The notes beneath the pieces are model-generated. The model saw nothing but the letters and a program-made list of their open reading frames with translations. It had not been told where the DNA came from and did no database searches. From Candidatus Hydrogenedentota bacterium (GTDB taxonomy: Bacteria > Hydrogenedentota > Hydrogenedentia > Hydrogenedentales > CAILVY01), in contig CAILVY010000071.1 of assembly GCA_903837785.1 (NCBI GenBank), positions 1 through 43,068 on the forward strand: a stretch of DNA of 43,068 nt. Direction: 5' to 3'. Within the stretch, counting starts at the first letter, position 1. Each line of letters starts with the position of its first letter. This document shows, piece after piece, positions 1 to 11,924 of the stretch. The position numbers were made by a program, and so were the translations under genes.

Positions 1-2460
1 GAAACTGACGTCCCCGGCCGGAACGTCCCGCCGCAGTTCGAGCCAACTTACCCGGCCGTCGAGAATCGGTCCCGTGCGGACGGCATAGCTGCCCCCATGA
101 AGATCCGAACTGTCCACCAGCCATGGTTTTCCCGCGTTGTCCCCGTTCTCGATGGTATTGTGCGAGAGAAAGAGGCTCCCGCCCGTGTTGCAGATGTCAT
201 CGCCGTTCCCCCACAAGATCGAGTTGGTTATTCTCGCCGCCGTCGAGGAAAGATACGCGCCGTGGCCGAAATTCCCGGCAATCGTGCAGTGCGAAATATC
301 CAGCGTGCCGCCGCTGATATACAGGCCGTCTCCGTGGGGTGCAGCGTTCCCGTAGACCAGCGTGTCCCGAAGCAACACATTTGCGGTGGTGGTGGCGATC
401 CCTCCGCCCAGATTAGAGAAACTCGAATTCAAATTCCCGCGGAACAGACTCCGAACCACGCGAAGCCGGCCGCCGCTCAGGTAGAGTCCGCCCCCGTACG
501 CCGTCGCCGTATTCGACGACACCTCGGCACGGTTCATATACAAGCGCGTTGCTGCACCTTCGCCATATACCCCGCCGCCGTAAGACACCCCTGCTCCGCC
601 GGTAACGCGGAGATCCTGCAGCACCGCCCCGGCTCCGGAGGCCAATGTCACCACCCGGCCCGTGCCGGGGCCGGCCAGCGTCGTAGCACCGGTTGCGTTC
701 ATGCCGGAACCGACCAGCGCCACGCCGTCCGGAACCGTGATGTTCTCCGCATACGCGCCCGCGCCGATACGGACCATCAAGGGCCGGGTTGCCGTCACCG
801 TCAACGCATGCTGGACGCTCGCATACGGATTCCCGCTGCTGCCGTCGCCCGTATCGTCATGCCCCAGGGCGCCGTCTACATGCACTACGGCCGGTGAAAG
901 GGCCGACTGCACGACCGAACCGATCACCCATTCTCCATAGTTGGGCAATCCGTCGGCGTCCACATCCATATCCGCGTCCAGACGATCCAGCGGGTCCAGC
1001 CCGCCGTCCACTTCCCATCCGTCCTCCATGTTGTCGCCGTCCGAGTCGTTGGAGGAGGGGTTTGTGCCAATGGCCAGTTCTTCGCCGTCTTCAATTCCGT
1101 CGTCGTCGCTGTCCGTGTTCGTGGGGTCGGTTACGTAGCCGTCCGCATCTCCGTGCGTCCCGTCGCCGTACATCTCGTCCCCGTCCAGGATATCATCACC
1201 GTCCGAATCGTCGTTGTTCGGATCAGTGCCGGTCCAGTATTCCTGAAGATTGGTCAACCCATCGGCATCTTCGTCGCCGCTGGAAAGATGCGAAAGGTCC
1301 GTAAAGGCCAAGGTTTCCCAGGCATCGCCCAGCCAGTCGCTGTCGGTGTCCGATTGGGCGGAGAAGGCGGAGAAGTCCGCCGTGATTCCGGGAAGAATGT
1401 ACACCGGCGACTGGCCGCCGGGCGTGCCGTCTGCATAGGCCACCACGGTGCGTTCGCGCTTGACGGAGCCGCCCGTATACCGCAAAGTGACATCATAGCT
1501 GCTGGCAAAGACCTTCGGCGCGGCCGGGGTGGTGCTTCGGCGAATGCCATCCAGATACACCTCGGACACGTACTTGCTCTGAATCGGAAGCGTGGGCATG
1601 AGTGCCTGTGCGGCCGTCAGATAGCCTTGCGCCGTGCTGCTCGACCCGTAGCCCATCGAAACGGACATGGCGCGCAGCCATTGGATGTCGGGGACGTCGC
1701 TCTCCAGGGTCCAGGCATCGCCGAAGTCGGTCACGGCCTGCGAGAAGAGGCTGACCGACATGCTGTAGATGCCGTCTTGGAAGCGTTGCGCCGCGGTATC
1801 ATTGTCGAAGTTAAGCCCGGAAACACTCCGAAGAAGTTGAAGGTTGTACCCGGAAACCGCCCGCCAATAATCACCTTCCCCGGTATTCGCGATGAAGTCG
1901 TAATGCGCCGTTTCCGCGTCTGCCAGAAACCCCTGTTTGGCGTACGTGACCATCTTGGCCATGCGCCCGCGGCTGTAGTCCGGATCGACGGCAAGCGCCG
2001 CATCGTACCGCGCAAGCGCATCGACATAATTCTCCTGTTCGTCGCATATCCAACCCAGGCCAAACAGCAACTTGGGGTTGTCTGGCGCGAGCACCAGTCC
2101 TGCTTCGTACTCCGCTGCGGCGCCGGTCAGATTCCGCTGGGCTGCATAACACTTGCCCGCGTTGATGTATGGGGCAACATAGGCCGCATCGAGCGTCTTG
2201 GCCTGTCCAAAATCAGTCTGCGCATCCGTGAAATTGTTCTGATGATACCTCGCCAGTCCGCGGTTGTTGAACGCAATGGCACTGGCCGGATTGGCCGTGA
2301 TATAGGCGCTGTAGTGGGCCTCCGCCAGGGCATACTGGGCCAGGAAAAAGTCATAATTGCCTTCTTCGAGTTCCGTCGCCGTGGCACAGAGGGAGCAGAA
2401 GGTCATTGCCGCCGCGAGCAGTGCCCGGTGCGCCTTTCGCGTCATGATTCCCTTTTTCAT
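1..2460 (-). CDS. Secreted TPR / Ca-repeat / parallel beta-helix protein, C-terminus outside window
   Basis: The frame is open from an ATG at 2460 (AAGGGA 8 nt upstream) to the left edge, giving at least 820 residues. The N-terminus (Met-Lys-Lys-Gly, then an Ala/Leu-rich stretch ending near ATA at 26-28) looks like a signal peptide. Residues about 28-170 are TPR units (for example AFNNRGLARYHQNNFTDA near 62). Residues about 370-520 are Asp-rich thrombospondin-type-3-like calcium repeats (DSDGDDILDGDEM, DSDDDGIEDGEE, DSDGDNMEDGWE). From about 525 a DUF1565-like start (GNPYASVQHAL) leads into a right-handed beta-helix with GGGVYG and GGGLYLSGG turns. It begins 95 nt after the Cys-rich peptide gene on the same strand and is probably co-transcribed with it. 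It may be a surface protein associated with the peptide product, or an unrelated neighbour. Confidence 0.85.
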   Translation of the reverse strand, partial: MKKGIMTRKAHRALLAAAMTFCSLCATATELEEGNYDFFLAQYALAEAHYSAYITANPASAIAFNNRGLARYHQNNFTDAQTDFGQAKTLDAAYVAPYINAGKCYAAQRNLTGAAAEYEAGLVLAPDNPKLLFGLGWICDEQENYVDALARYDAALAVDPDYSRGRMAKMVTYAKQGFLADAETAHYDFIANTGEGDYWRAVSGYNLQLLRSVSGLNFDNDTAAQRFQDGIYSMSVSLFSQAVTDFGDAWTLESDVPDIQWLRAMSVSMGYGSSSTAQGYLTAAQALMPTLPIQSKYVSEVYLDGIRRSTTPAAPKVFASSYDVTLRYTGGSVKRERTVVAYADGTPGGQSPVYILPGITADFSAFSAQSDTDSDWLGDAWETLAFTDLSHLSSGDEDADGLTNLQEYWTGTDPNNDDSDGDDILDGDEMYGDGTHGDADGYVTDPTNTDSDDDGIEDGEELAIGTNPSSNDSDGDNMEDGWEVDGGLDPLDRLDADMDVDADGLPNYGEWVIGSVVQSALSPAVVHVDGALGHDDTGDGSSGNPYASVQHALTVTATRPLMVRIGAGAYAENITVPDGVALVGSGMNATGATTLAGPGTGRVVTLASGAGAVLQDLRVTGGAGVSYGGGVYGEGAATRLYMNRAEVSSNTATAYGGGLYLSGGRLRVVRSLFRGNLNSSFSNLGGGIATTTANVLLRDTLVYGNAAPHGDGLYISGGTLDISHCTIAGNFGHGAYLSSTAARITNSILWGNGDDICNTGGSLFLSHNTIENGDNAGKPWLVDSSDLHGGSYAVRTGPILDGRVSWLELRRDVPAGDVSF

Positions 2461-2555: not shown

Positions 2556-2870
2556 TCAATAGGGATAGTGATAGATCGTGTGGCAGGAATCGCCCACGCA
2601 ACAATTGCCCACGCACGAACAGCCACCCGATTGGCCGCCGACGTGATAGGTCACCGTGTTGCAGACGCAGGTTTCTACGGGCACACACGTGCAGACAACC
2701 TCCGTTCCGCAAGTCGCGGGCGCGCCGGTCGGCGTGGTCAGTTCCTCGTCCAGATCAGGCTTGACGTAGGCACGGAGATTAGTCACGGCATAAATCTTTG
2801 GAGGATCAGCGTTCTCTTCCAATGGCACGCTCAGGATGCTGTCGTTCGGTTTGCTGTCTTGTTCAGACAC
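2556..2870 (-). CDS. Cys-rich peptide, putative RiPP precursor of the radical SAM cluster
   Basis: This gene encodes 104 residues from a GTG start. The GTG lies in another frame inside the last codons of the preceding radical SAM gene (8-nt overlap), with GGAG 9 nt upstream and no in-frame ATG that would serve better. The first ~50 residues are acidic/proline-rich and Cys-free, like a leader. The last ~50 hold ten cysteines at 54, 60, 62, 68, 70, 84, 86, 90, 91 and 96, including three CxC pairs (CTC, CVC, CSC) and a CC pair, separated by Gly/Val/Thr segments, ending HYPY. There is no signal peptide. Position directly behind three radical SAM/SPASM genes and the leader/core split argue for a substrate that receives thioether or other crosslinks; this is inference. 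An alternative is a Cys-rich metal-binding or structural subunit, in the manner of the QHNDH gamma subunit matured by QhpD. Confidence 0.75.
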   Translation of the reverse strand: MSEQDSKPNDSILSVPLEENADPPKIYAVTNLRAYVKPDLDEELTTPTGAPATCGTEVVCTCVPVETCVCNTVTYHVGGQSGGCSCVGNCCVGDSCHTIYHYPY

Positions 2871-4146
2871 AGGCCGGTTCTCCCACGTTGAAATTCGATT
2901 GAATACTCTTTGTCACGGGCCGTTGTTGCGGTGTCGCCATATGGCGGAGCAGCACCTTCAACGCCAGAAGTTTTTCTTCACATTCTTCGCCGGAGTGTCC
3001 GGCCGCGTACGGCAGCCGCTCACGGAGGTTGCAGCCGGCAAAACAAACGGGCATCAGCGGGCATGCTGTACAGCGGTCCAAGACAAGCCCGTCCAATGCT
3101 TGGGTTCGCAGCTTCAAGTTGAAGTGCATCCCATTGTGGTCCGGCCCGAATCCACCCCATACACCTCGCTCCGGGGCGCTCGTATCTTCGGAGGGGCCAT
3201 GGAAGTCATACGACTCGAGTATGGAATGCGGGGGCGACACGTGAATCTTGTCAAAAGGACGCAACGCCGGCGTCAGTCCCAGGGCCTCCCGGGTGACCAG
3301 TCCGTGTTCCACGGGCAGGCCCAGGCGCTCGCCTTCTTTCAGGGCCAGTTCAAATCCTTCGATGAAGTCCTTGACCGAAGGGGCCTGCTCGGCGACTTGC
3401 GGAAGCGTCTCCATGCGAAATAGCCGCACCTCTCCGGCATGCGCTTTATGCAGAAAGCGCACCATTTCCACCATGCGTCCCACACCGGATTGGGTAACAA
3501 CCACATTGACCGTTGTTCTTTTGCCGCGTTCGCACAGCTGTTCAATCAGGTCCAGAGGCGCTGGCACCGGGTCCCTTCCATCGCCACGGGGACGCTGAAT
3601 TCGTTGCAGTTCCGGGAGCCCGTCGAAAGAGACGGTCACGTTGTCAAATCGATCGGCGACCCAGCCGGCCTTGGCTTCGTCCACCTGCCCCGCCGTGCAC
3701 AGTTGCAGGTACGTCCTTCTGCCGTGTCGGCTGGCAGCTTGCTCCGCGATTTCCACGCACTGGCAGAACAGCGTCCAGTGCGCCAGGGGTTCGCTGGGTC
3801 CCTGGAATGTCAGATAGACATCGCGTTGTTTGCGCATCGCATTCTCGGCTACGAAATCCATGACCGCCCGGAAGAATTCCAACTCCAACAGTTCCTTGCG
3901 CCCGTGAGACGGATTCGCAAAGCAATACACGCACCGGTTTGGACAGGCGAAAGACAACGCGGCGCTCACCCGATAGGGCAAGAATGGACCTTCCCCCTGG
4001 GTGTCAAACTCAACCATCTGATCCCGTAGACCCTCGAATTGCGCTGCCGCAGTCTTGTTCGCACGAAACAACAGGTTGGACGAGGGCGCATAGGCCAACC
4101 AGTCGTTGTTGTCGGGAAAGACCATGCACTCAGGCTGCCAACGCAT
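2863..4146 (-). CDS. Radical SAM/SPASM peptide maturase, third of three, atypical
   Basis: 427 residues. The radical SAM cluster motif CX3CX2C is C68, C72, C75 (FACPNRCVYCF). A SPASM-type C-terminal set C359-x2-C362-x5-C368-x3-C372 ... C389 is present, but the first SPASM cysteines (C...Gx4C) seen in its two neighbours are absent. The usual GGEP S-adenosylmethionine-binding motif is replaced by QGPSEP (115-120). The N-terminal ~50 residues (DWLAYAPSSNLLFRANKTAA) match the pattern seen in the other two maturases and resemble a PqqD/RRE-like entry domain. The ATG at 4146 overlaps the previous gene by 17 nt and has AGAGGAAG upstream; Met8 at 4125 is a weaker alternative. It is probably the enzyme acting closest to the peptide encoded behind it, or a partner subunit with reduced cluster content. 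Confidence 0.88.
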   Translation of the reverse strand: MRWQPECMVFPDNNDWLAYAPSSNLLFRANKTAAAQFEGLRDQMVEFDTQGEGPFLPYRVSAALSFACPNRCVYCFANPSHGRKELLELEFFRAVMDFVAENAMRKQRDVYLTFQGPSEPLAHWTLFCQCVEIAEQAASRHGRRTYLQLCTAGQVDEAKAGWVADRFDNVTVSFDGLPELQRIQRPRGDGRDPVPAPLDLIEQLCERGKRTTVNVVVTQSGVGRMVEMVRFLHKAHAGEVRLFRMETLPQVAEQAPSVKDFIEGFELALKEGERLGLPVEHGLVTREALGLTPALRPFDKIHVSPPHSILESYDFHGPSEDTSAPERGVWGGFGPDHNGMHFNLKLRTQALDGLVLDRCTACPLMPVCFAGCNLRERLPYAAGHSGEECEEKLLALKVLLRHMATPQQRPVTKSIQSNFNVGEPACV

Positions 4147-5494
4147 TCGTTTCTTCCTCTTCCAGGCGGATTTGGTCCGCCTCGGCAGACAACCCCATAT
4201 CCTGCAAGATGCGCCACAACGTCAACCGCCGCGTCGCCGCGCACATGGCGCCAGGCGCATCCGTACAATAGGGTGGCGAATGATGTATACGGCATCCCCC
4301 GGCGCAATGCCACTGGCAGAAGCAGCCTTGGCACCTTGGAATGTCATGCACCGCGTATGAACGCATCAGTTCGACCCGCTTCTGATCGATACGCAGTGTC
4401 CGGGTCTCGAAGTCATAGGCACCCAGGGAAAACAGCGGTGCATATTCGGATTCGCGGTGGTCTGCCGCGTAGCATGCCGCCGCCAGGCCATCCGGGGCCA
4501 GCACCAGGTGATCGCAAGCCACAAGACAACTGGAGCAATCCAAACGTTCAGGCCGAACCATGCCGAACTTCAATCCCACCCCATGCTCTCGTGCGACCTT
4601 TCCCGCGGCCACAACAGCATTCACGTACTGCGGAATACCCGGCGTCTTGAGGTCAGACTCCAGACATCGGCCCGTCCTCATCAACGGTTCAAAGTTCATG
4701 TTGCGGGGACGGAATCGCTGGCAGAAGTGTCCGGCGATCTCCGGAAGCAAGTCGACCATCCCGGCGCTGACGGTACACCGGAGCGTATACCCAAGTCCTT
4801 CGGCAGCGAATATGTCTAATGTCCTCGCAACGGCATCATAGGTTCCGCTGCCGGTTGCGGAGGGTCTGTTCAGGTCATGAATGCTGGGTGGGCCGTCCAG
4901 GGACACCACAAGGTAGTTCATGTTCTGAGCCGCCCAGTGTGCCTTCGTCGGTGACATAAAGGCATTCGTGTCCGCCGTGATAATGAATGGACGTGCCAAC
5001 TCATCCGCAAGACGCTTGCCGGTTTCGACGATGTATCGCACCTGATCCCACGCGCAGAAGGGCTCGCCCCCGAAGAGCGAGACGGTCAGGCTGCCATAGT
5101 TGAACTGCCGGACCACCTCGGTCTGATAGCGCAGCCCGGCCTCGCACACTTCGAGCGGCATTACGCCCGTATCCCGGTCTCCGGCGGCGGGCGCACAATA
5201 CAGGCAGCGCATATTGCAGCCATTGGTGGGCAGGAAAGACACCTGCCGTGGTGCAAAGGTGCCTTCCGGAGGCGCGGGCGGTTTTCGAGGAGTTTGTGCC
5301 AACTGCTCCCGCAGCGGTTCGAGTGCCACGGGCAACACGCCCGGCAAAGCGTTCCCAAGGGATTGCTGGAGCATCTCGCCCGCGGTGCGGTTCACCCAGG
5401 CGGCCACATTGCGCAATGGCGCGTAGACAAGGCACTTGTCCCGATAGAACTCGAAGAAGATATCGTGATGTGCCTCGTTTATATCAGGACACAT
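4130..5494 (-). CDS. Radical SAM/SPASM peptide maturase, second of three
   Basis: 454 residues. C93-x3-C97-x2-C100 binds the radical SAM 4Fe-4S cluster, and GGEP at 142-145 is the SAM-binding motif. The SPASM region is rich: C320, C323, C327, C341, then C388-x2-C391-x-C393-x3-C397-x3-C401 and C410/C418, enough for two auxiliary clusters. The N-terminus (CLVYAPLRNVAAWVNRTAGE, 21-40) has the PqqD-like 'YxP...(L/V)N.TA..(I/M)L' pattern, so a fused or degenerate RRE domain is plausible. The ATG at 5494 overlaps the upstream gene by 16 nt, with GAGGG 7 nt before it. SPASM proteins of this layout modify peptide side chains (for example sactionine/ranthionine crosslinks, Tyr or Lys chemistry). The precise reaction cannot be read from the sequence. 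Confidence 0.9.
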   Translation of the reverse strand: MCPDINEAHHDIFFEFYRDKCLVYAPLRNVAAWVNRTAGEMLQQSLGNALPGVLPVALEPLREQLAQTPRKPPAPPEGTFAPRQVSFLPTNGCNMRCLYCAPAAGDRDTGVMPLEVCEAGLRYQTEVVRQFNYGSLTVSLFGGEPFCAWDQVRYIVETGKRLADELARPFIITADTNAFMSPTKAHWAAQNMNYLVVSLDGPPSIHDLNRPSATGSGTYDAVARTLDIFAAEGLGYTLRCTVSAGMVDLLPEIAGHFCQRFRPRNMNFEPLMRTGRCLESDLKTPGIPQYVNAVVAAGKVAREHGVGLKFGMVRPERLDCSSCLVACDHLVLAPDGLAAACYAADHRESEYAPLFSLGAYDFETRTLRIDQKRVELMRSYAVHDIPRCQGCFCQWHCAGGCRIHHSPPYCTDAPGAMCAATRRLTLWRILQDMGLSAEADQIRLEEEETNALAA

Positions 5495-6801
5495 GGGACA
5501 TCCCTCAGCGCGGCCAACAGGAGATACTTGGTGATCTTCCGGTTAATCTCGCAGCGCACGCTGGGGCGCTGGTAGTCGAAGACGGTCTCGGCGTTGATGA
5601 CCTTGACGGGACAGTCCCCCGAGCAATTCCATTTCGCAAAACAATCATCGCAAAGGCGTTTGCTGTCGACGGTGAGACGGCGCAAGGCCGCCAGGCGTTC
5701 CTGATCGATCACAAAACGGCGCGTCGAAGCGTCGAAATGCCCAAAAAAGAACTTCTCGGACAGGGGATTGGAGCACTCGAGCACTTCGTAGCACCCCGTG
5801 ATGTTGCCGTCCGTCGCCACGTTGAAGGAATCCTGAGAACAGCCGCAGAAACTGTTGAAGACGCCGCCAATGCGTGCCGCAGAATAGCGGACCGGCAGCT
5901 TGTGTTGTCTTCCCACATCAATGGCTTCCAGATACCTTTGAACAAAGCGCTCCGGATCCGGCAGTTGTTCCGGCCGATCCAGGCACCGGCCCCGTTCATA
6001 GAGCGGCTCGAAATGCACCAGAACGGGCTTGACCTCCCCGGCAAAGAACCGAACCATTTCGGGCATCATCTCGACGGACTTCGAAGTAACGGAACTGCGT
6101 ATTACAAAGGGCACCTTATGCCGGTGCATGTTCTCGACAAAACGCATCACCTCCCTGAACGAGCCCTTCCCGTTCCTCATCGGACGCTGTTCATCCTGGA
6201 TTTCTTCAGGGCCGTCGAGGGACAGGGTGATGGTCTGGAAATGCTCACCGATGAAATCGGCTTTCGCATCGGACATGACGCCATTGGTCGCGATGCCCAG
6301 GCGAAGCGGGTGGGGATTGTCAGCAGTACGTTCCAGCGCATACTTGGTTGCCGTTTCGATGATTTCCATGCCGCAGGTGGGTTCCCCCCCGCCATGGAAT
6401 CCCAGGTGGGGCGGCTTGTCCCGCAACCGGGCATTCTCGAGGATCCAGTCGATCGCCGCCCGGCAGAATTCCATCGGGATGACGGCGGGCGCCTTCTCGC
6501 CAGCCCGCGCGTAGCAGTATCGGCACGCAAGATTGCAGCGGTTTGTGACGAAAAGCGTGGTCATGGTTGGCAGGAACGGTGCGTCAGCGCAGATGGCCGA
6601 CGGTGGCATGGCATTCAAGAGTTGGTCGAGGTCGCCCAACTGGTCCGCAATCTCAGGAGACAGCGATTCCCGGTTCCCGGTCCGAACGAAGTCTTGGATT
6701 TCTGCCGCGCAGGCCCCATTGACCAAGGTGATCAACCCAACAAGTGGCGCATAGACGATATACCGCTCTTCATGTGGGATGATGAACACATCTCGAATCA
6801 T
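5479..6801 (-). CDS. Radical SAM/SPASM peptide maturase, first of three
   Basis: 440 residues. The radical SAM motif is C89-x3-C93-x2-C96 (NRCNLACRYCYA), with GGGEPT at 137-142. A complete SPASM signature follows: C319/C321 with G332-x4-C337, then C384-x2-C387-x5-C393-x3-C397 and C417. The N-terminus (ERYIVYAPLVGLITLVNGAC) carries the same entry-domain pattern as its two partners. The three proteins are clearly paralogous in plan but diverged in sequence, so they probably perform different steps rather than being recent copies. The start has only a weak AAAGG about 11 nt upstream. 114 nt separate it from the PqqD-like gene, with no supportable gene between. Confidence 0.9.
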   Translation of the reverse strand: MIRDVFIIPHEERYIVYAPLVGLITLVNGACAAEIQDFVRTGNRESLSPEIADQLGDLDQLLNAMPPSAICADAPFLPTMTTLFVTNRCNLACRYCYARAGEKAPAVIPMEFCRAAIDWILENARLRDKPPHLGFHGGGEPTCGMEIIETATKYALERTADNPHPLRLGIATNGVMSDAKADFIGEHFQTITLSLDGPEEIQDEQRPMRNGKGSFREVMRFVENMHRHKVPFVIRSSVTSKSVEMMPEMVRFFAGEVKPVLVHFEPLYERGRCLDRPEQLPDPERFVQRYLEAIDVGRQHKLPVRYSAARIGGVFNSFCGCSQDSFNVATDGNITGCYEVLECSNPLSEKFFFGHFDASTRRFVIDQERLAALRRLTVDSKRLCDDCFAKWNCSGDCPVKVINAETVFDYQRPSVRCEINRKITKYLLLAALRDVPCVLI

Positions 6802-6915
6802 CTATCGCCGGGCCTTTCCTGACGGTCTACCCTTCACGCTCCGCCCAACCTTCGTGTGGCAGGAGTCCAGGCTCCGAAAGTTCCTGGAGATGCTCACCTT
6901 GCGGGACAGGGTAGT

Positions 6916-7452
6916 TCACAAAGGGTTCGACTTGGGAGCTTTCAGCACCTTGAGGGGACGAAGAATCACGCCACGGCCATTCTTGAACTTGGCTCCTGCC
7001 TCACGTTCCACGCACACGTTTCCGCCCATCGTCAACACGCCTTTGCCCACAAGCTGATCGATGAACGGGCCAATTTCGGCTTCTGAAATGCGGAGTTTGG
7101 CTGCGGCCCGCCGGATCACCTCTGCTCTTGCGGTCTGGCCATCACATAGCAGCCAGATTTCTTTCGCGGAAGGGTTCAAACGATATGCCTTAAACGGCTT
7201 CTGAACATCCCCTGCCCAAACCAACAGGTCTCCCGTATCGAGAAGTCCAGCGTCCATGCCCGGGTTTTGATACAGCGCCGAATCCGGCATCGACACCGTA
7301 ACCTGGACGTTTTCCGCACTTGGGGCGGTCTTGATACCCTGCGCCCCGTCCGCATAACAAGCTGCAGCAAAGCCTGCAGACAGCCCCGCACGGCCAACCC
7401 ATGCCAAGAACTCCCGCCTCGGCACTTCCTCAAAGAGAAGATCGCTCGACAT
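6916..7452 (-). CDS. PqqD-like (RRE) protein with Tat-like N-terminus
   Basis: 178 residues from the ATG at 7452, chosen because GGGAGGA lies 10 nt upstream; the open frame extends to 7524. Residues about 88-145 (AYRLNPSAKEIWLLCDGQ ... GPFIDQLVGKGVL) are a PqqD-type winged-helix peptide-recognition fold, which in RiPP systems holds the leader peptide for radical SAM enzymes. Unusually, the N-terminus has PRREFLAW at 11-18 followed by an Ala/Gly-rich stretch ending near 36, which looks like a twin-arginine export signal. The middle section (about 45-85) is of unknown type. It is the first gene of the maturase operon. If exported folded, the recognition domain would act outside the cytoplasm, at odds with the usual cytosolic chemistry; alternatively the RR helix is only a membrane anchor. 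Confidence 0.75.
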   Translation of the reverse strand: MSSDLLFEEVPRREFLAWVGRAGLSAGFAAACYADGAQGIKTAPSAENVQVTVSMPDSALYQNPGMDAGLLDTGDLLVWAGDVQKPFKAYRLNPSAKEIWLLCDGQTARAEVIRRAAAKLRISEAEIGPFIDQLVGKGVLTMGGNVCVEREAGAKFKNGRGVILRPLKVLKAPKSNPL

Positions 7453-7824
7453 GGTTTTCAGGTCCTCCCGGATGCCACAACCCCGTTGCCTCGAGTCTTC
7501 CCGGCATGTGATTGGAGCCTCCACCTACTTCACTCGGCATTTCGCGTTGCTTGGACGACGATGCGGTTCTTGGAAGCAGACCTTCTTCGCGCCGTCGTTC
7601 TGAGACGAGAATTACCTTCTTTACTCGGGATGATAAGGATAACAAGTGTCGTTCAAGCACAGACTCGCCGCAATGAATGCCCCTGTCCGAGCAGTCTACG
7701 GGCAGCGCTTGAAGGAAACAGAATAGATTTGCCGCCGGATCTTCTGGATAGGGAATCAGTTGCAGATGAAGACGCCTCACGGTTACACCCAACTTACACC
7801 ACAAAAGCAGCCTCTATCCCTTCC
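7453..7824 (-). other. Long 5' leader of the radical SAM operon
   Basis: About 370 nt lie between the expected transcription start (~7824) and the chosen ATG at 7452. The minus strand has an open frame here (TTG at 7804 to 7430) that overlaps the PqqD-like gene, but it lacks an ATG start, has no recognisable domain and becomes low-quality sequence toward its end. I therefore do not call it a gene. No known riboswitch motif was recognised. Confidence 0.4.
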
Positions 7825-7830
7825 TTGAAC

Positions 7831-7859
7831 GTTATATCACGATGCGCCGAATCTGTCAA
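7831..7859 (-). promoter_or_regulatory. Near-consensus sigma70-type promoter of the radical SAM operon
   Basis: On the minus strand TTGACA (7859-7854) is followed after exactly 17 nt by TATAAC (7836-7831). Both boxes are near perfect, predicting a start near 7824. It is the best promoter seen in the window and points into the PqqD-like/radical SAM/Cys-rich peptide genes. Confidence 0.75.
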
Positions 7860-7969
7860 TTTTGCAGATTATTCCCACTTTGTATTCCCCGCGACATGTC
7901 CGCGAATCAGCACGGAACGACGACGACAGTGACTGTTCCCCGCGTTTCCCGATATGCGAAGAACGTCTG

Positions 7970-8150
7970 TCAACTTCCGCCCAAGGCTTCTGCCAGCGCT
8001 TCGAGCAGCACATCCCGGGGCATGGCCCGAAGCGCATTGAGCAGGGTTTGCTTGGGGTCCTTCGGGATTGCTGGGGTAACCGTTGGGGTAACGGGATTCT
8101 CGCCCGCTTGCAAGTCATTGATACACAAGTCTTTACAACTCCAATCAGTG
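7970..8150 (-). pseudogene. Possible C-terminal relic of a gene cut off at the tRNA fragment
   Basis: From about 8149 the minus strand reads about 59 residues ending ALAEALGGS, with protein-like stretches VTPTVTPAIPKDPKQ and MPRDVLLEALAEAL. Upstream it runs into antisense tRNA sequence, so no start can belong to it. A 3' end of a gene abutting an attachment-like tRNA fragment would suit a truncated integrase or other element gene, but the identity is not established. Confidence 0.25.
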
Positions 8151-8198
8151 TGACTCATAATCACTTGGTCGCAGGTTCGAGTCCTGCAGGGCCCACCA
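8148..8198 (+). pseudogene. 3' half of a CAU-anticodon tRNA (Met/Ile2-type), attachment-site remnant
   Basis: The sequence contains an anticodon arm with loop CTCATAA, a perfect T-arm GCAGG-TTCGAGT-CCTGC (8171-8187), an acceptor 3' strand AGGGCCC, discriminator A and encoded CCA (8196-8198). No D-arm or matching GGGCCCT 5' strand lies upstream, so only the 3' half is present. Such fragments mark the distal end (attR) of elements that integrate into tRNA 3' ends, which would place the element on its left side, that is, over the radical SAM cluster. No full copy is in the window. Confidence 0.6.
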
Positions 8199-8575
8199 AA
8201 ATATCTCCTCAGCGCTGATCGCATTTCGGCACGGACACCTTCGCCGCAACGCGGCGAGCGCCCCTCCAGACGATCCCCTTCCTGTCCGTTTTGCGGTGCT
8301 TTGGTCATTCCTGGATTTTGCCGGGTGAGGTGAAGAGCCGTCTGTTGTTTTCACGTTTTCAGGTGTATCCAGAGAATACTGCTGTACTGGGCTTTTACTG
8401 CAAAGCGTGTTGTTGTGTTTCGGACCGGGCGCTACGCCTCGGACTCAGTTGTTCGGGAAAAACGCAGCAGAGGGAGAGACTACTTCATGGTCTACGGCTT
8501 CTTGGGCAGCCCCTCAAACGTTGCGGTAGATTGGCCCTCCTGCCCGACTCCTCAGTTGGACGCTTTTGCGCCGGC
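8199..8575. other. Intergenic, no gene supported
   Basis: Open frames on both strands here are short or only antisense readings of the tRNA fragment. No domain, ribosome-binding site or RNA element was recognised apart from the promoter that follows. Confidence 0.4.
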
Positions 8576-8605: not shown

Positions 8606-8631
8606 GCGAAAAACAAATGGAGAAAAGACTG

Positions 8632-9705
8632 ATGAAGCCGTTCTTAAGCGTTTGCCTTGTGTCGTCCGCCGCGTGCATCGCGCTCTTGCTTTCAGGTTGT
8701 CCGACAACGGCGGCGGGACCGCAGGCAGACTTCACTGCGGATGTTATATCGGGTGCCGCGCCGCTTGGCGTTCAATTCACGGACCTTTCTAACCCCGGCG
8801 TCTCGGCGATTACGCAGTGGGAATGGCTGTTCGGCGACGGTGAAAGCAGCACGCAACAGCACCCCGCGCATACCTATGTGGCGGCTGGAACCTATAACGT
8901 TTCCTTGAAGGTCACCAACGCCGGGGGCAACGACACCGCACTGAAATTGAACTACATCACCGCGGCTTCCGGGGGTGAAGGCGAAGGTGAAGGCGAAACG
9001 GAAACCATCCTGCTTCCCGGCAACGTACCCTTGACGATGACGCGGATTCCCGCGGGGCCGTTTCTGATGGGCAGGTATGCGGGCGAACAGGCGGGTGTTG
9101 CCAATGAGGACCCTCAACACGCGGTAACGGTGCCGGAATTCTGGATCGGCAAGTATGAGGTGACCCAGGCGCAGTGGCAGGCGGTGGCGGGAATCAATCC
9201 GTCCCATTTTGGCGGCGACAACAGGCCCGTGGACAGTGTCACCTGGGATGACATCACGAATACGTTCCTGCCCGCGTTGAATGACGCGACGGGGCGCACC
9301 TTCCGGCTGCCCTCGGAGGCGGAGTGGGAATATGCCTGCCGGGCGGGGACAACGACGCGCTTTTACTGGGGCGACGACCCGAGCTACAGCCTGCTTGATC
9401 AGTACGCCTGGTATTCCGTCAACAGCACGGCGCAGACCCATGACGTGGGCGGCAAGCTGCCGAACGCATGGGGATTGTACGATATGACCGGGAACGTCTG
9501 GGAGTGGGTGCAGGACTGGTATCATCCGGACTACACGGGTGCGCCCGGTGACGGAAGCGCCTGGGGGTTGGGCACGGTTTCAAACCACGTGTTGCGCGGT
9601 GCCTGCTGGAGCAACAGCGACACCCTCTGCCGGTCCGCCAGCCGCACTGACTATTTCCCCGGCAGCTCGAACTATTACTTTGGCTTCCGCCTCGTTCATA
9701 ACTGA
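8632..9705 (+). CDS. Lipoprotein with PKD domain and FGE/SUMF1-like domain
   Basis: 357 residues from the ATG at 8632, which has GGAG 9 nt upstream; an ATG at 8617 is in frame but would lie about 5 nt from the predicted transcript start. A lipobox LLSGC puts the lipidated Cys at 23. Residues about 30-110 are a PKD domain (WLFGDGESSTQQHPAHTY). A short Gly-Glu linker follows, and about 125-357 are a formylglycine-generating-enzyme/sulfatase-modifying-factor domain (FWIGKYEVTQAQW, FRLPSEAEWEYACRAG, YDMTGNVWEW, CRSASR, GFRLV). In secreted bacterial relatives this fold often serves as a binding scaffold rather than making formylglycine. It has the same plan as the larger protein at 14108-17533, sharing ETILLPG at the linker/FGE junction. 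Confidence 0.88.
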   Translation: MKPFLSVCLVSSAACIALLLSGCPTTAAGPQADFTADVISGAAPLGVQFTDLSNPGVSAITQWEWLFGDGESSTQQHPAHTYVAAGTYNVSLKVTNAGGNDTALKLNYITAASGGEGEGEGETETILLPGNVPLTMTRIPAGPFLMGRYAGEQAGVANEDPQHAVTVPEFWIGKYEVTQAQWQAVAGINPSHFGGDNRPVDSVTWDDITNTFLPALNDATGRTFRLPSEAEWEYACRAGTTTRFYWGDDPSYSLLDQYAWYSVNSTAQTHDVGGKLPNAWGLYDMTGNVWEWVQDWYHPDYTGAPGDGSAWGLGTVSNHVLRGACWSNSDTLCRSASRTDYFPGSSNYYFGFRLVHN

Positions 9706-10247
9706 GCCCCGGCTCATGTGATCTTCCGTTTGACCGCGCGGCCCAAGATACCGCAATCGCCCGGCGCCGTCCTGATACAGAACCTGCCGCATCGGTTCCT
9801 TCATATGCCGCCTATCAGGCCTTTGGTGGAGGTCCGAGCACCACGGAAGGGTTTGGCCTGTGCGGAGGTTTCGGGTTGGCGGAGAAGGCCACCAGGATTC
9901 GCGCTATCACCAGGGATCACAGGAGGACGTGCAGAATCTTCATGCCGCCCAGCAGCACTGGCACGCGAATCACGGTATCCGAACCGGCCGAAGTGCACCC
10001 GGTCGCATCGTCGGATTCCAAGTCGATCATCCGCGTGACCGGGAACGGTGAATCCGTCATGCACACCGTGGTATCCGGTGCGGCAACCTCATGACTGATC
10101 ATGAAGAGAAAGGCTTCTTTGGCACTCGCCCTGCGCTCCCGCACCATTGGACGGCCCGCACCGCTTTCCGTCAGAATGTCTTATGGCGACGTATCCGGGC
10201 CGCACGTCCGGCTCGGGACAATCTGAACCTTGACAAGGGGTGAGTTC
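9706..10247. other. Intergenic, no gene supported
   Basis: About 540 nt. A small TGAGCC-CC-GGCTCA inverted repeat sits at 9703-9716 over the stop codon but lacks a T-tract. Short open frames exist on both strands around 9880-10150 (about 75 residues each) without a ribosome-binding site or recognisable domain; they could be decayed coding sequence. The last ~20 nt hold the AAGGGG ribosome-binding site of the next gene. Confidence 0.35.
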
Positions 10248-11924
10248 ATGAAACGGAATTCCCTGTTGCTGCTCGTTGCGATGGCGATCGCGGCCCTGCC
10301 GGGTACCGCAGGACAGGTGAGTCTCGAATCGCTGCTGCGTGAAATGGCCGACCGGGGCCGTGTGGCCACATTGCCCGACCCGGACTATCGCTCCCTGCAG
10401 GCCAGCAGCTACAACCGGGCATCCGTACCGCCCCGCGGCTCCGAGGGCTGGTTTGCCGACAGTGACGGCGTCGGGTTCATCCGCGAGGAAAAGAACGGCG
10501 GCCGCAGGGAGTGGGTCATCATGGAGCATGACGGCCCGGGCTGTCTCAGCAGGTTCTGGACTCCCTACTTTTATTACGATCTCAACGACCATCGCGGCCC
10601 CCGGCTGCGTGTGTACCTCGACGGGGCGGATGACCCTGTCATCAACGCCGGTTTCATCGAACTGCTGACGCGCGGCGAGTACGACGGCGCCCCCTCCAGC
10701 GAAAATGACTTCTCGGTCCCGGGCCCCTTCGCCCGGTACACCGCGCGGGCGGGCGACCTCTATCTGCCCATCCCCTTCGCCAGGAGCTGCAAAATCACAC
10801 TGGACAAGAAGCCCTTCTACAACATTGTCAATTACCGCGCCTATCCCCCCGGCACGTCCGTGGACACCTTCACCCCAAAGGCCTATGCCGACGCGCAGCC
10901 GCTTCTCAAAGAGACAGGCGCCATCCTTGAAACCGCACCGGAACAGGACGGAGGCACGGTCTTGACGATGGATCGGACAATTGCGCCGGGCTCGCGGGAG
11001 ACGCTCGGCCTGCCCGACGGCAGCCACGCCGTACGCCACCTGGAACTGCGCCTGGGTCCCGAATCGTATGTGCAGCGGCTGCGATCCACCGTGCTGCGGA
11101 TGGCCTGCGACGGCGAGGAAACCGTTTGGACGCCCGCGGGGGACTTCTTCTGCAGCGGCGACGGCCTGAACGCGTTTCACACCTGGGAGCGCAGTGTGAG
11201 CGCCGATGGCGCCATGGCCTGCCGCTGGGTCATGCCCTACCGGGACAGCGCCGGAATCACGCTGGAGAATCTCGGGCCCGATCCGGTGCACGCGGCCCTG
11301 CGGGTGCGCGTGATGGAGGAACCCTGGGACGCGGCCCGCTCCATGCACTTCCACGCGCACTGGCGCACCGATGAACCCGTGCCGGGCACCCCCTTTCAGG
11401 ACTGGAACTTCGTGGACATCCGGGGGCGCGGCGTGTATGTGGGAGACGCGTGGACGGTGCTCTGTCCCGACAAAGGCTGGTGGGGCGAGGGGGACGAGAA
11501 GATCTACATAGACCGGGATTACGACAACCGGAAATTCCCCAGCCACTTCGGCACCGGCTCGGAAGATTATTACGGATGGGCCGGCGGCGTCGTTCCCACC
11601 GGGGCCGACGTATTCTCCACCCCGTTCCTGTCCAATGTCCGCATCGGCAATCCGGCCAACCCGCGGGGCTACAATATCTGCACCCGCACCCGCGTGCTCG
11701 ACGCCATTCCCTTCGCCAACCGCCTGCGTTTCGACATGGAGGCGTCCTTCGGCGTGGACATCCGCAACCCGTGGAACTTGCTCCACTACGCGGTGGTCAC
11801 CTACTGGTACGCCCGGCCCGGCGCCGTACACAACCGCCCGCCCCAGCCCGACTGGGCCGCCAAACCGGCCATGACCGTCGAGGAACTGGACGCCCGCGAA
11901 CAGGCACTCCGCCCCGGAAAGTAG
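10248..11924 (+). CDS. Secreted glycoside hydrolase family 172 (DUF2961) protein
   Basis: 558 residues from the ATG at 10248 (AAGGGGTGAG upstream; a TTG 18 nt earlier is less likely). An N-terminal signal peptide MKRNSLLLLVAMAIAALPG is evident. The remainder matches the DUF2961/GH172 family: WVIMEHDGPGCLSRFWTP near the N-terminus, GEGDEKIYID (E414/E417) and FPSHFGTGSEDYYGW (E439). The two carboxylates about 22 residues apart fit the Glu pair used by characterised GH172 enzymes, which act on fructofuranosides or arabinofuranosides; the substrate here is unknown. It is exported, and no transport or regulatory gene is adjacent. It stands alone between a lipoprotein gene and a tRNA gene. A 614-residue antisense open frame is a GC-bias shadow. 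Confidence 0.88.
   Translation: MKRNSLLLLVAMAIAALPGTAGQVSLESLLREMADRGRVATLPDPDYRSLQASSYNRASVPPRGSEGWFADSDGVGFIREEKNGGRREWVIMEHDGPGCLSRFWTPYFYYDLNDHRGPRLRVYLDGADDPVINAGFIELLTRGEYDGAPSSENDFSVPGPFARYTARAGDLYLPIPFARSCKITLDKKPFYNIVNYRAYPPGTSVDTFTPKAYADAQPLLKETGAILETAPEQDGGTVLTMDRTIAPGSRETLGLPDGSHAVRHLELRLGPESYVQRLRSTVLRMACDGEETVWTPAGDFFCSGDGLNAFHTWERSVSADGAMACRWVMPYRDSAGITLENLGPDPVHAALRVRVMEEPWDAARSMHFHAHWRTDEPVPGTPFQDWNFVDIRGRGVYVGDAWTVLCPDKGWWGEGDEKIYIDRDYDNRKFPSHFGTGSEDYYGWAGGVVPTGADVFSTPFLSNVRIGNPANPRGYNICTRTRVLDAIPFANRLRFDMEASFGVDIRNPWNLLHYAVVTYWYARPGAVHNRPPQPDWAAKPAMTVEELDAREQALRPGK

What the first reader, a model, noticed from the sequence alone, without database searches (positions are those of the whole stretch)
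2556..7859. Candidate undescribed RiPP system: three radical SAM/SPASM enzymes, a PqqD-like protein and a ten-Cys peptide
Seen: one strong promoter, then a PqqD-like gene, three overlapping radical SAM/SPASM genes with full CX3CX2C motifs, and a 104-residue peptide with a Cys-free first half and ten cysteines in the second. Known: RRE plus radical SAM/SPASM plus a small Cys-rich peptide is the logic of sactipeptide, ranthipeptide and related systems. Inference: three diverged maturases acting on one peptide imply several kinds of modification, and I do not recognise this combination as a named class. No protease/exporter is visible in the window, so the product may be a structural or cofactor-like peptide rather than an antibiotic.
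Basis: partly seen in the sequence, partly recalled or inferred. Interest (0 to 1): 0.88.

Follow-up and report, generated by a model that had tools for sequence, protein, structure and literature searches.

The report
Cysteine-peptide operon with Tat-tagged chaperone
This bacterial operon encodes a small cysteine-rich peptide, three radical SAM enzymes predicted to build new bonds into it, and a peptide-recognition protein that starts with a Tat-like twin-arginine segment and would likely carry the finished peptide out of the cell, and in distant relatives the same cysteine motif lies near the end of propeller proteins that are predicted to be exported.

Summary
The same order recurs in an acidobacterial MAG; two further loci have RRE, one rSAM, peptide and TPR protein. 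The peptide family (20 sequences) shares a PxIYxV leader motif (18 of 20) and a CxCxxV core. An rSAM2-profile search gave 12 new genomes: in 11 a nearby ORF carries CxCxxV, and in 10 of them it is a twin-arginine WD40 protein. In 8 of 12 such ORFs PxIYxV sits exactly 15 residues before the twin arginines. rSAM2-clade enzymes go with a C-terminal Y[WH]xP in 5 of 5 loci, against 0 of 10 without them. I infer that rSAM1 acts on CxCxxV, that rSAM2 acts on the aromatic end, and that the Tat signal, in cis on propeller fusions, lies in trans on the RRE here, so the matured peptide would leave as a hitchhiker. Chemistry, export and function are untested. The searches made found no family model or paper that describes it.

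The parts
7831..7859 (-). promoter-like site TTGACA-17-TATAAC
   Evidence: unique in the 43-kb contig; not listed by the generic scan
6916..7452 (-). RRE / PqqD-like protein, 178 aa, with N-terminal twin-arginine segment
   Evidence: Pfam PF05402 over cut-off; the first 11 Foldseek hits of the model are RiPP-biosynthesis proteins, among them TbiB1 with its leader, TruD and PqqD, but none has E <= 0.001; five homologues aligned
7336..7419 (-). Tat-like signal RREFLA + hydrophobic stretch (residues 12-39)
   Evidence: RR, F invariant in 5 of 5 homologues; TIGR01409 cut-off passed in 1 of 5 (the G019 protein), not in the window protein
7033..7191 (-). PqqD-fold domain
   Evidence: (pLDDT about 89-96 in residues 91-140)
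5479..6801 (-). rSAM1, SPASM-type maturase (CNLACRYC)
   Evidence: 45% identical to rSAM1 of L062
4130..5494 (-). rSAM2 (CNMRCLYC)
   Evidence: 51% identical to rSAM2 of L062; clade support 99/100 with the second rSAM of L076, L089, L090, L091
2863..4146 (-). rSAM3, diverged (CPNRCVYC), first auxiliary-cluster cysteines missing
   Evidence: 33% identical to rSAM3 of L062
2556..2870 (-). precursor peptide, 104 aa, ten Cys
   Evidence: 20-member family; the only ORF of the window with two CxCxx[VI]
2784..2801 (-). leader motif PKIYAV (PxIYxV)
   Evidence: 18 of 20 peptides, 8 of 12 CxCxxV ORFs of the new loci
2757..2768 (-). leader motif YVKP (YxxP-type, a likely RRE contact)
   Evidence: [YFL]xKP in 19 of 20 peptides; YxxP-type recognition sequences described in passages of PMC12710340
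2583..2711 (-). cysteine core with CTCVPV and CVCNTV
   Evidence: C60, C62, V63, P64, C68, C70, V73 invariant in 20 of 20
2562..2573 (-). C-terminal YHYP, exactly 5 residues from the end
1..2460 (-). TPR + TSP3 + right-handed beta-helix protein with signal-peptide-like start, cut by the contig end
   Evidence: Pfam TPR_2 and Beta_helix over cut-off, TSP3_bac just under; homologue directly downstream of the peptide in 4 of 4 peptide loci

Best explanation
The operon likely makes a ribosomal peptide that three radical SAM enzymes are predicted to modify in the cytoplasm, after which the peptide would be exported through the Tat translocase by riding on the recognition protein that holds its leader. 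Shown: gene order, the shared PxIYxV leader and CxCxxV core, the twin-arginine segment on the RRE protein, the synteny, and the association of rSAM2 with a C-terminal Y[WH]xP. Inferred steps: (1) the PqqD-like RRE and the PqqD-like N-termini of the enzymes bind the leader (PxIYAV...YVKPDL). (2) rSAM1, the type present where there is only one enzyme, works on the CxCxxV core, most likely making Cys thioether links. (3) rSAM2 works on the C-terminal aromatic Y[WH]xP. (4) rSAM3 adds or assists a further step. (5) In propeller proteins leader, Tat signal, WD40 domain and core lie in one chain, so leader removal and export would be one event; here the Tat signal was split off onto the RRE, so the matured peptide hitchhikes. 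(6) Outside it would join the secreted TPR/beta-helix protein of the same operon, as an envelope structural or redox element rather than a diffusible antibiotic.
For: Synteny of RRE, rSAM1, rSAM2, rSAM3, peptide and TPR with 45, 51, 33 and 54% identity for the three enzymes and the peptide in L062. One-enzyme loci G001 and L063 with RRE, peptide and TPR. Twin arginines in 5 of 5 RRE homologues, TatC in the genome. Of 12 new genomes found through rSAM2 alone, 11 have an ORF with CxCxxV within 2.3 kb (10 with two or more motifs), against 0 such two-motif ORFs in 35 control loci of 110,742 bases. 10 of the 12 have it on a twin-arginine protein, and all 11 such ORFs pass the Pfam WD40 cut-off. PxIYxV exactly 15 residues before RR in 8 of 12 ORFs (shuffle expectation 0.07). 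Y[WH][YHF]P at position -5 in 5 of 5 loci with rSAM2 and 0 of 10 without (Fisher 3.3e-4). Natural Tat hitchhiking exists (PMC4273604, abstract).
Against: No chemistry, export or binding was measured. TIGR01409 (Tat signal) passes its cut-off in only 1 of 5 RRE proteins and 2 of 11 fusion ORFs, and the window RRE gave no hit. A signal on the RRE could simply be a membrane anchor. The intact three-enzyme form is known from two genomes; G019 holds only remnants without a peptide. L089 (G106) has an rSAM2-clade enzyme with no core ORF in about 48.7 kb of its 50.5-kb contig. The Y[WH]xP pattern was written after seeing the sequences, the rows are related, and the extra rSAM ORFs of L076, L090, L091 and L094 were not put in the tree. 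4 of 12 CxCxxV ORFs and 2 of 20 peptides lack PxIYxV. The last search, in the order of G099, met only 6 genomes and no new rSAM2 locus.
Confidence: 0.6

Rival explanations
1. A ranthipeptide- or SCIFF-like RiPP whose product stays in the cell or leaves by an unlinked route; the twin-arginine segment only anchors the RRE at the membrane.
For: The best NCBIfam hits of rSAM1 are PapB (131.6 bits) and the SCIFF maturase (117.7). The peptide has two CX3[DE] sites, at C62 and C90. Tat models mostly fail on the RRE.
Against: All scores are far below the curated cut-offs (340, 425). PxIYxV keeps a fixed 15-residue spacing to the twin arginines in 8 fusion ORFs, and the core is joined to twin-arginine WD40 proteins in 10 of 12 genomes, which points to export.
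Confidence: 0.25
2. The peptide is a metal-binding protein and its cysteines stay free; the radical enzymes act on another target, such as the TPR protein.
For: CxC-rich tails resemble metallothionein-type ligands (recalled). The TPR protein is adjacent in 4 of 4 peptide loci.
Against: The radical SAM genes track CxCxxV, not TPR: in fusion loci the neighbour is a WD40 protein with the same core.
Confidence: 0.1
3. A chance cluster of generic radical SAM genes beside an unrelated small ORF.
For: The genome has 45 Radical_SAM matches.
Against: Synteny in a different phylum, a 20-member peptide family, and 0 of 35 control loci with the motif.
Confidence: 0.02

Closest known systems
Ranthipeptides (PapA/PapB; SCIFF and its maturase)
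   Same: SPASM-type radical SAM enzyme, RRE-guided leader, Cys-rich core; closest models by score and closest solved structure 5WGG (CteB by recall)
   Different: Scores far under the cut-offs; repeated CxCxxV instead of a CX3D ladder; up to three enzymes; twin-arginine RRE or fusion; TPR or WD40 partner
Quinohemoprotein amine dehydrogenase gamma subunit (QhpC with QhpD)
   Same: Radical SAM cross-linked small subunit with leader, made in the cytoplasm and used in the periplasm (passages of PMC7876137); by recall it packs on a beta-propeller subunit
   Different: QhpC leaves by an ABC exporter after QhpE cleavage (same passages); TIGR03906 not met (94 of 453 bits); I saw no qhp-type gene within the operon
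Multi-radical-SAM RiPPs (ruminococcin C, thuricin CD, His-Xaa-Ser system)
   Same: More than one radical SAM enzyme per cluster (abstracts; His-Xaa-Ser by recall)
   Different: Those enzymes make sactionine bridges in antibiotics or act on other motifs; HxsB model not met
Precursors with Sec signals paired with DUF2063-type RREs
   Same: A signal peptide on a RiPP precursor (passage of PMC12710340)
   Different: Sec, not Tat; the signal is on the precursor, not on the RRE
Tat hitchhiker complexes (HybOC, PaoABC)
   Same: A partner without a signal rides on a Tat-tagged one (PMC4273604, abstract and opening paragraphs)
   Different: Those are cofactor enzymes; a RiPP recognition domain as carrier is proposed here

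Membership tests
RiPP (general) | precursor gene with conserved leader and variable core beside modifying enzyme and RRE | tested here: met
RiPP (general) | post-translational modification of the core | not testable with these tools
   needs mass spectrometry
Ranthipeptide (PapB type) | maturase over the PapB equivalog cut-off (340 bits) | tested here: not met
   131.6, 85.2 and 39.9 bits for rSAM1-3
Ranthipeptide (PapB type) | repeated CX3D/E acceptor motif (PapA has six; abstract of PMC9413430) | tested here: not met
   two CX3[DE] in the window peptide
SCIFF system | maturase over TIGR03974 (425 bits) and a matched precursor family | tested here: not met
   117.7, 84.6 and 45.3 bits; no NCBIfam hit for the peptide
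QHNDH (QhpC/QhpD) | QhpD model TIGR03906 (453 bits) | tested here: not met
   94, 55.8 and 34.1 bits
PQQ biosynthesis | PqqD equivalog TIGR03859 (46 bits) | tested here: not met
   18.3-18.7 bits; the broader Pfam PqqD fold is met
His-Xaa-Ser system | HxsB model TIGR03978 (370 bits) | tested here: not met
   76.4, 60.1 and 31.2 bits
SPASM-domain radical SAM enzymes | TIGR04085 over 27 bits | tested here: inconclusive
   rSAM1 32.9 (met), rSAM2 21.9 and rSAM3 16.0 (not met), scanned as C-terminal pieces
Tat substrates | twin-arginine signal on the RRE | tested here: inconclusive
   RR.F in 5 of 5; TIGR01409 over cut-off in 1 of 5, not in the window protein
Tat substrates | Tat-dependent export | not testable with these tools
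   TatC is present in the genome

The most novel reading that the evidence does not exclude
A new class of radical-SAM-matured, Tat-exported cores: the CxCxxV/Y[WH]xP element is a peptide-derived cofactor or cross-linked relay that is built in the cytoplasm and shipped either as the tail of a WD40 propeller (Tat signal in cis) or as a free peptide carried by a Tat-tagged RiPP recognition protein (in trans), with rSAM2 converting the terminal aromatic group, much as small cofactor subunits sit on propellers in quinoprotein dehydrogenases.
Probability: 0.3. Interest if true: 0.93.

Novelty: new variant of a known kind. Interest (0 to 1): 0.82.

Why it matters
RiPP products are usually thought of as leaving through dedicated ABC exporters after a protease has cut the leader. 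A recognition element that carries its own Tat signal, or a leader fused to a Tat signal, would tie maturation to the export of folded cargo and remove the need for a protease. The split and fused forms let one ask, by simple gene removal, which enzyme makes which bond: rSAM1 alone against rSAM1 plus rSAM2 predicts whether the C-terminal Y[WH]xP is changed. The system also gives a likely function to WD40 and TPR proteins of poorly known phyla.

Tried and rejected
Window peptide alone against 60 relatives: apart from G001 (E 0.0026) the listed places are weak, several with stops, and were not followed. RRE alignment over 68 genomes: 3 strong matches; 6 weak ones (5e-6 to 0.009) were not followed. 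Peptide profile over 68, 396 and 387 genomes: no genome beyond the window's, G001 and the two seeds, so the stand-alone peptide is rare. L064 (Actinomyces MAG): a chance match across stops, inside another reading frame. Plasmids: no match. G048, G052 and G010 (L050-L052): a radical SAM gene beside a twin-arginine Cys-rich protein, without CxCxxV; kept as noticed, not as members. Rfam on 7300-8300: one sub-threshold tRNA match. Prospective rSAM2 search in the order of G099: 6 genomes, no new rSAM2 locus. The rest of the G106 contig, except its last 1.8 kb: no core. Not done: PHROGs and PADLOC scans, a second structure prediction.
Full report
OBSERVATION. The window is a whole contig (C71) of a 7.29-Mb draft genome. 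The same-genus relative's RRE protein is named in NCBI as from a Candidatus Hydrogenedentes bacterium, so the window very likely belongs to that group. All genes of the finding are on the minus strand. Order: promoter-like TTGACA-17-TATAAC at 7859..7831, PqqD-like protein 7452..6916, rSAM1 6801..5479, rSAM2 5494..4130, rSAM3 4146..2863, peptide 2870..2556, and a TPR/TSP3/beta-helix protein from 2460 to beyond the contig end. The three enzymes are paralogues; rSAM2 and rSAM3 are 27 and 25% identical to rSAM1. All keep CX3CX2C. rSAM1 has a SPASM domain over cut-off, rSAM2 one below it, and rSAM3 has lost the first auxiliary-cluster cysteines.

THE RRE CARRIES A TWIN-ARGININE SEGMENT. The PqqD-like protein begins with RREFLA and a hydrophobic stretch. 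Homologues from G001, G019, L062 and L063 have NRRNFLA, SRRQFLA, SRRDFVA and SRRKFIK at the same place. The curated Tat model passes only in G019 (19.7 of 16.7 bits), scores 14.2 and 13.5 in L062 and L063, and does not hit the window or G001 protein. The genome has TatC. An AlphaFold model from the five sequences (mean pLDDT 68, about 89-96 in residues 91-140) has as its first 11 Foldseek hits RiPP-biosynthesis proteins with leader-binding domains (TbtB, MibB, lasso TbiB1 with leader, TruD, PqqD and others). The best E-value is 0.0086, and none is under 0.001.

THE PEPTIDE FAMILY. A search from the window and G001 peptides gave 19 proteins (E from 2.6e-56 to 7.8e-11); with L063 there are 20. 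Invariant are K37, E42, C60, C62, V63, P64, C68, C70, V73 and P103. PxIYxV is present in 18 of 20 (0.44 expected from shuffles), [YFL]xKP in 19 of 20, and Y[WH][YHF]P exactly five residues from the end in 16 of 20. No NCBIfam model matched the window, G001, L063 or L062-type peptide, and no Pfam model the window peptide.

SYNTENY. L062 (acidobacterial MAG) repeats RRE, rSAM1 (45%), rSAM2 (51%), rSAM3 (33%), peptide (54%) and a TPR/TSP3 protein. G001 and L063 (a MAG named Victivallis) have RRE, one rSAM, peptide and TPR protein. G019 keeps an intact RRE but only pieces of the three enzymes, and no peptide was found in its genome. The N-terminal part of the TPR protein aligns in 4 of 4 peptide loci. 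An SDR-like gene lies just upstream of the RRE in G019 and L062. The stand-alone peptide is rare: 2 of 68 genomes of the window's phylum, and only the seeds among 396 and 387 genomes of the phyla of L062 and L063.

THE CORE ALSO OCCURS AS A PROTEIN TAIL. An rSAM2 profile (no peptide information) was run on the same 387 and 396 genomes. It gave 3 genomes besides the seed at E <= 1e-50 and 9 besides the seed at E <= 1e-45. In 11 of these 12 an ORF with CxCxxV lies within 2.3 kb of the enzyme, overlapping or within 10 bases in 8 of the 10 fusion genomes; 10 of 12 have two or more motifs; G106 has none. By the two-motif count the window has one such ORF, its peptide, and 35 control loci (18 fetched by other radical SAM hits, 17 by weak peptide hits; 110,742 bases) have none. 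In 10 of the 12 genomes (11 ORFs) the ORF is one chain of leader, twin arginines, WD40 repeats and core; all 11 ORFs pass the Pfam WD40 cut-off, and the Tat model passes in 2 of 11. In L074 the core is followed by a Peptidase_S74 domain. G131 has a stand-alone CxCxxV peptide next to its rSAM. PxIYxV is found in 8 of the 12 ORFs, each time exactly 15 residues before the twin arginines (0.07 expected). The window leader carries the same motif, but there YVKPDLDEEL follows instead of a Tat signal, and the twin arginines are on the separate RRE.

ONE ENZYME, ONE MOTIF. In a tree of 26 radical SAM rows, window and L062 rSAM2 group with the second enzymes of L076, L089, L090 and L091 (99/100). The five of these six loci that have a core end in Y[WH][YHF]P at position -5; the ten loci without an rSAM2-clade row do not (Fisher 3.3e-4). 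Dropped from the count: L089, which has no core ORF. Cautions: the pattern was defined after seeing the sequences, the loci are related, and additional rSAM ORFs in L076, L090, L091 and L094 were not placed. The solo enzymes of G001 and L063 are most like rSAM1, so rSAM1 is taken as the core CxCxxV enzyme.

MECHANISM. Shown: the anatomy and associations above. Inferred: leader binding by the RRE and by the enzymes' N-termini; rSAM1 on CxCxxV; rSAM2 on the aromatic end; an unknown role of rSAM3; Tat hitchhiking of the matured peptide on the RRE; joining with the TPR/beta-helix protein outside. Hitchhiker export is established for HybOC and PaoABC (PMC4273604, abstract and opening paragraphs). 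YxxP-type recognition sequences are described for PqqD-type RREs (PMC12710340, passages). QhpC is the nearest precedent for a radical-SAM cross-linked subunit that ends in the periplasm, but it leaves by an ABC exporter (PMC7876137, passages).

NOVELTY. Membership in ranthipeptides, SCIFF, QHNDH, PQQ and His-Xaa-Ser systems was tested and not met (among the families shown, no equivalog cut-off was reached, the lists for rSAM1 and rSAM2 being capped at 25 of 73 and 56). Ten literature searches gave no description of a Tat-tagged RRE, of CxCxxV cores or of WD40 precursors; I judged from listings and abstracts, with passages or outline of four papers, and most subscription papers are not in the library. 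I file it as a new variant of the radical SAM RiPP kind.

Noticed in passing
L051:6954-9652, L052:4556-7209, L050:7990-10700: In three Hydrogenedentota-order genomes (G048, G052, G010) a distant radical SAM gene sits beside a twin-arginine protein with repeated SDxSGxCxxDxC units (53 and 49 Cys in L051 and L052); it may be a second radical-SAM/Tat system.
   Followed up: partly
L090:7216-12156, L091:11021-16298, L076:3608-8274: WD40-core loci with an rSAM2-clade enzyme also carry two much larger radical SAM ORFs (about 660-920 aa) and small proteins with an RR motif that no Pfam model matched.
   Followed up: partly
L074:10489-12201; L095:11356-13146; L096:10218-13298: In these fusions the core is not at the very end: a C-terminal stretch follows, a Peptidase_S74 chaperone domain by Pfam in L074 and similar by eye in L095 and L096, so the tail might be released by self-cleavage.
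   Followed up: partly
G019 C81, L046:9570-11970: Decayed version of the operon: intact Tat-like/PqqD gene followed by pieces of all three radical SAM genes and no peptide; decay or an assembly artefact.
   Followed up: partly
window 8127-8195 (+): Degenerate tRNA-like match, 26.3 bits against a gathering score of 29, not called by ARAGORN.
   Followed up: no
window 7453-7830: About 380 bases lie between the promoter-like site and the first gene, with no Rfam match in 7300-8300 other than the tRNA-like one; a long 5' leader or a mis-placed promoter.
   Followed up: partly
window 8617-9705 (+) and 10230-11924 (+): Neighbouring plus-strand genes: PKD + FGE-sulfatase-like protein, and a DUF2961 protein.
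   Followed up: no
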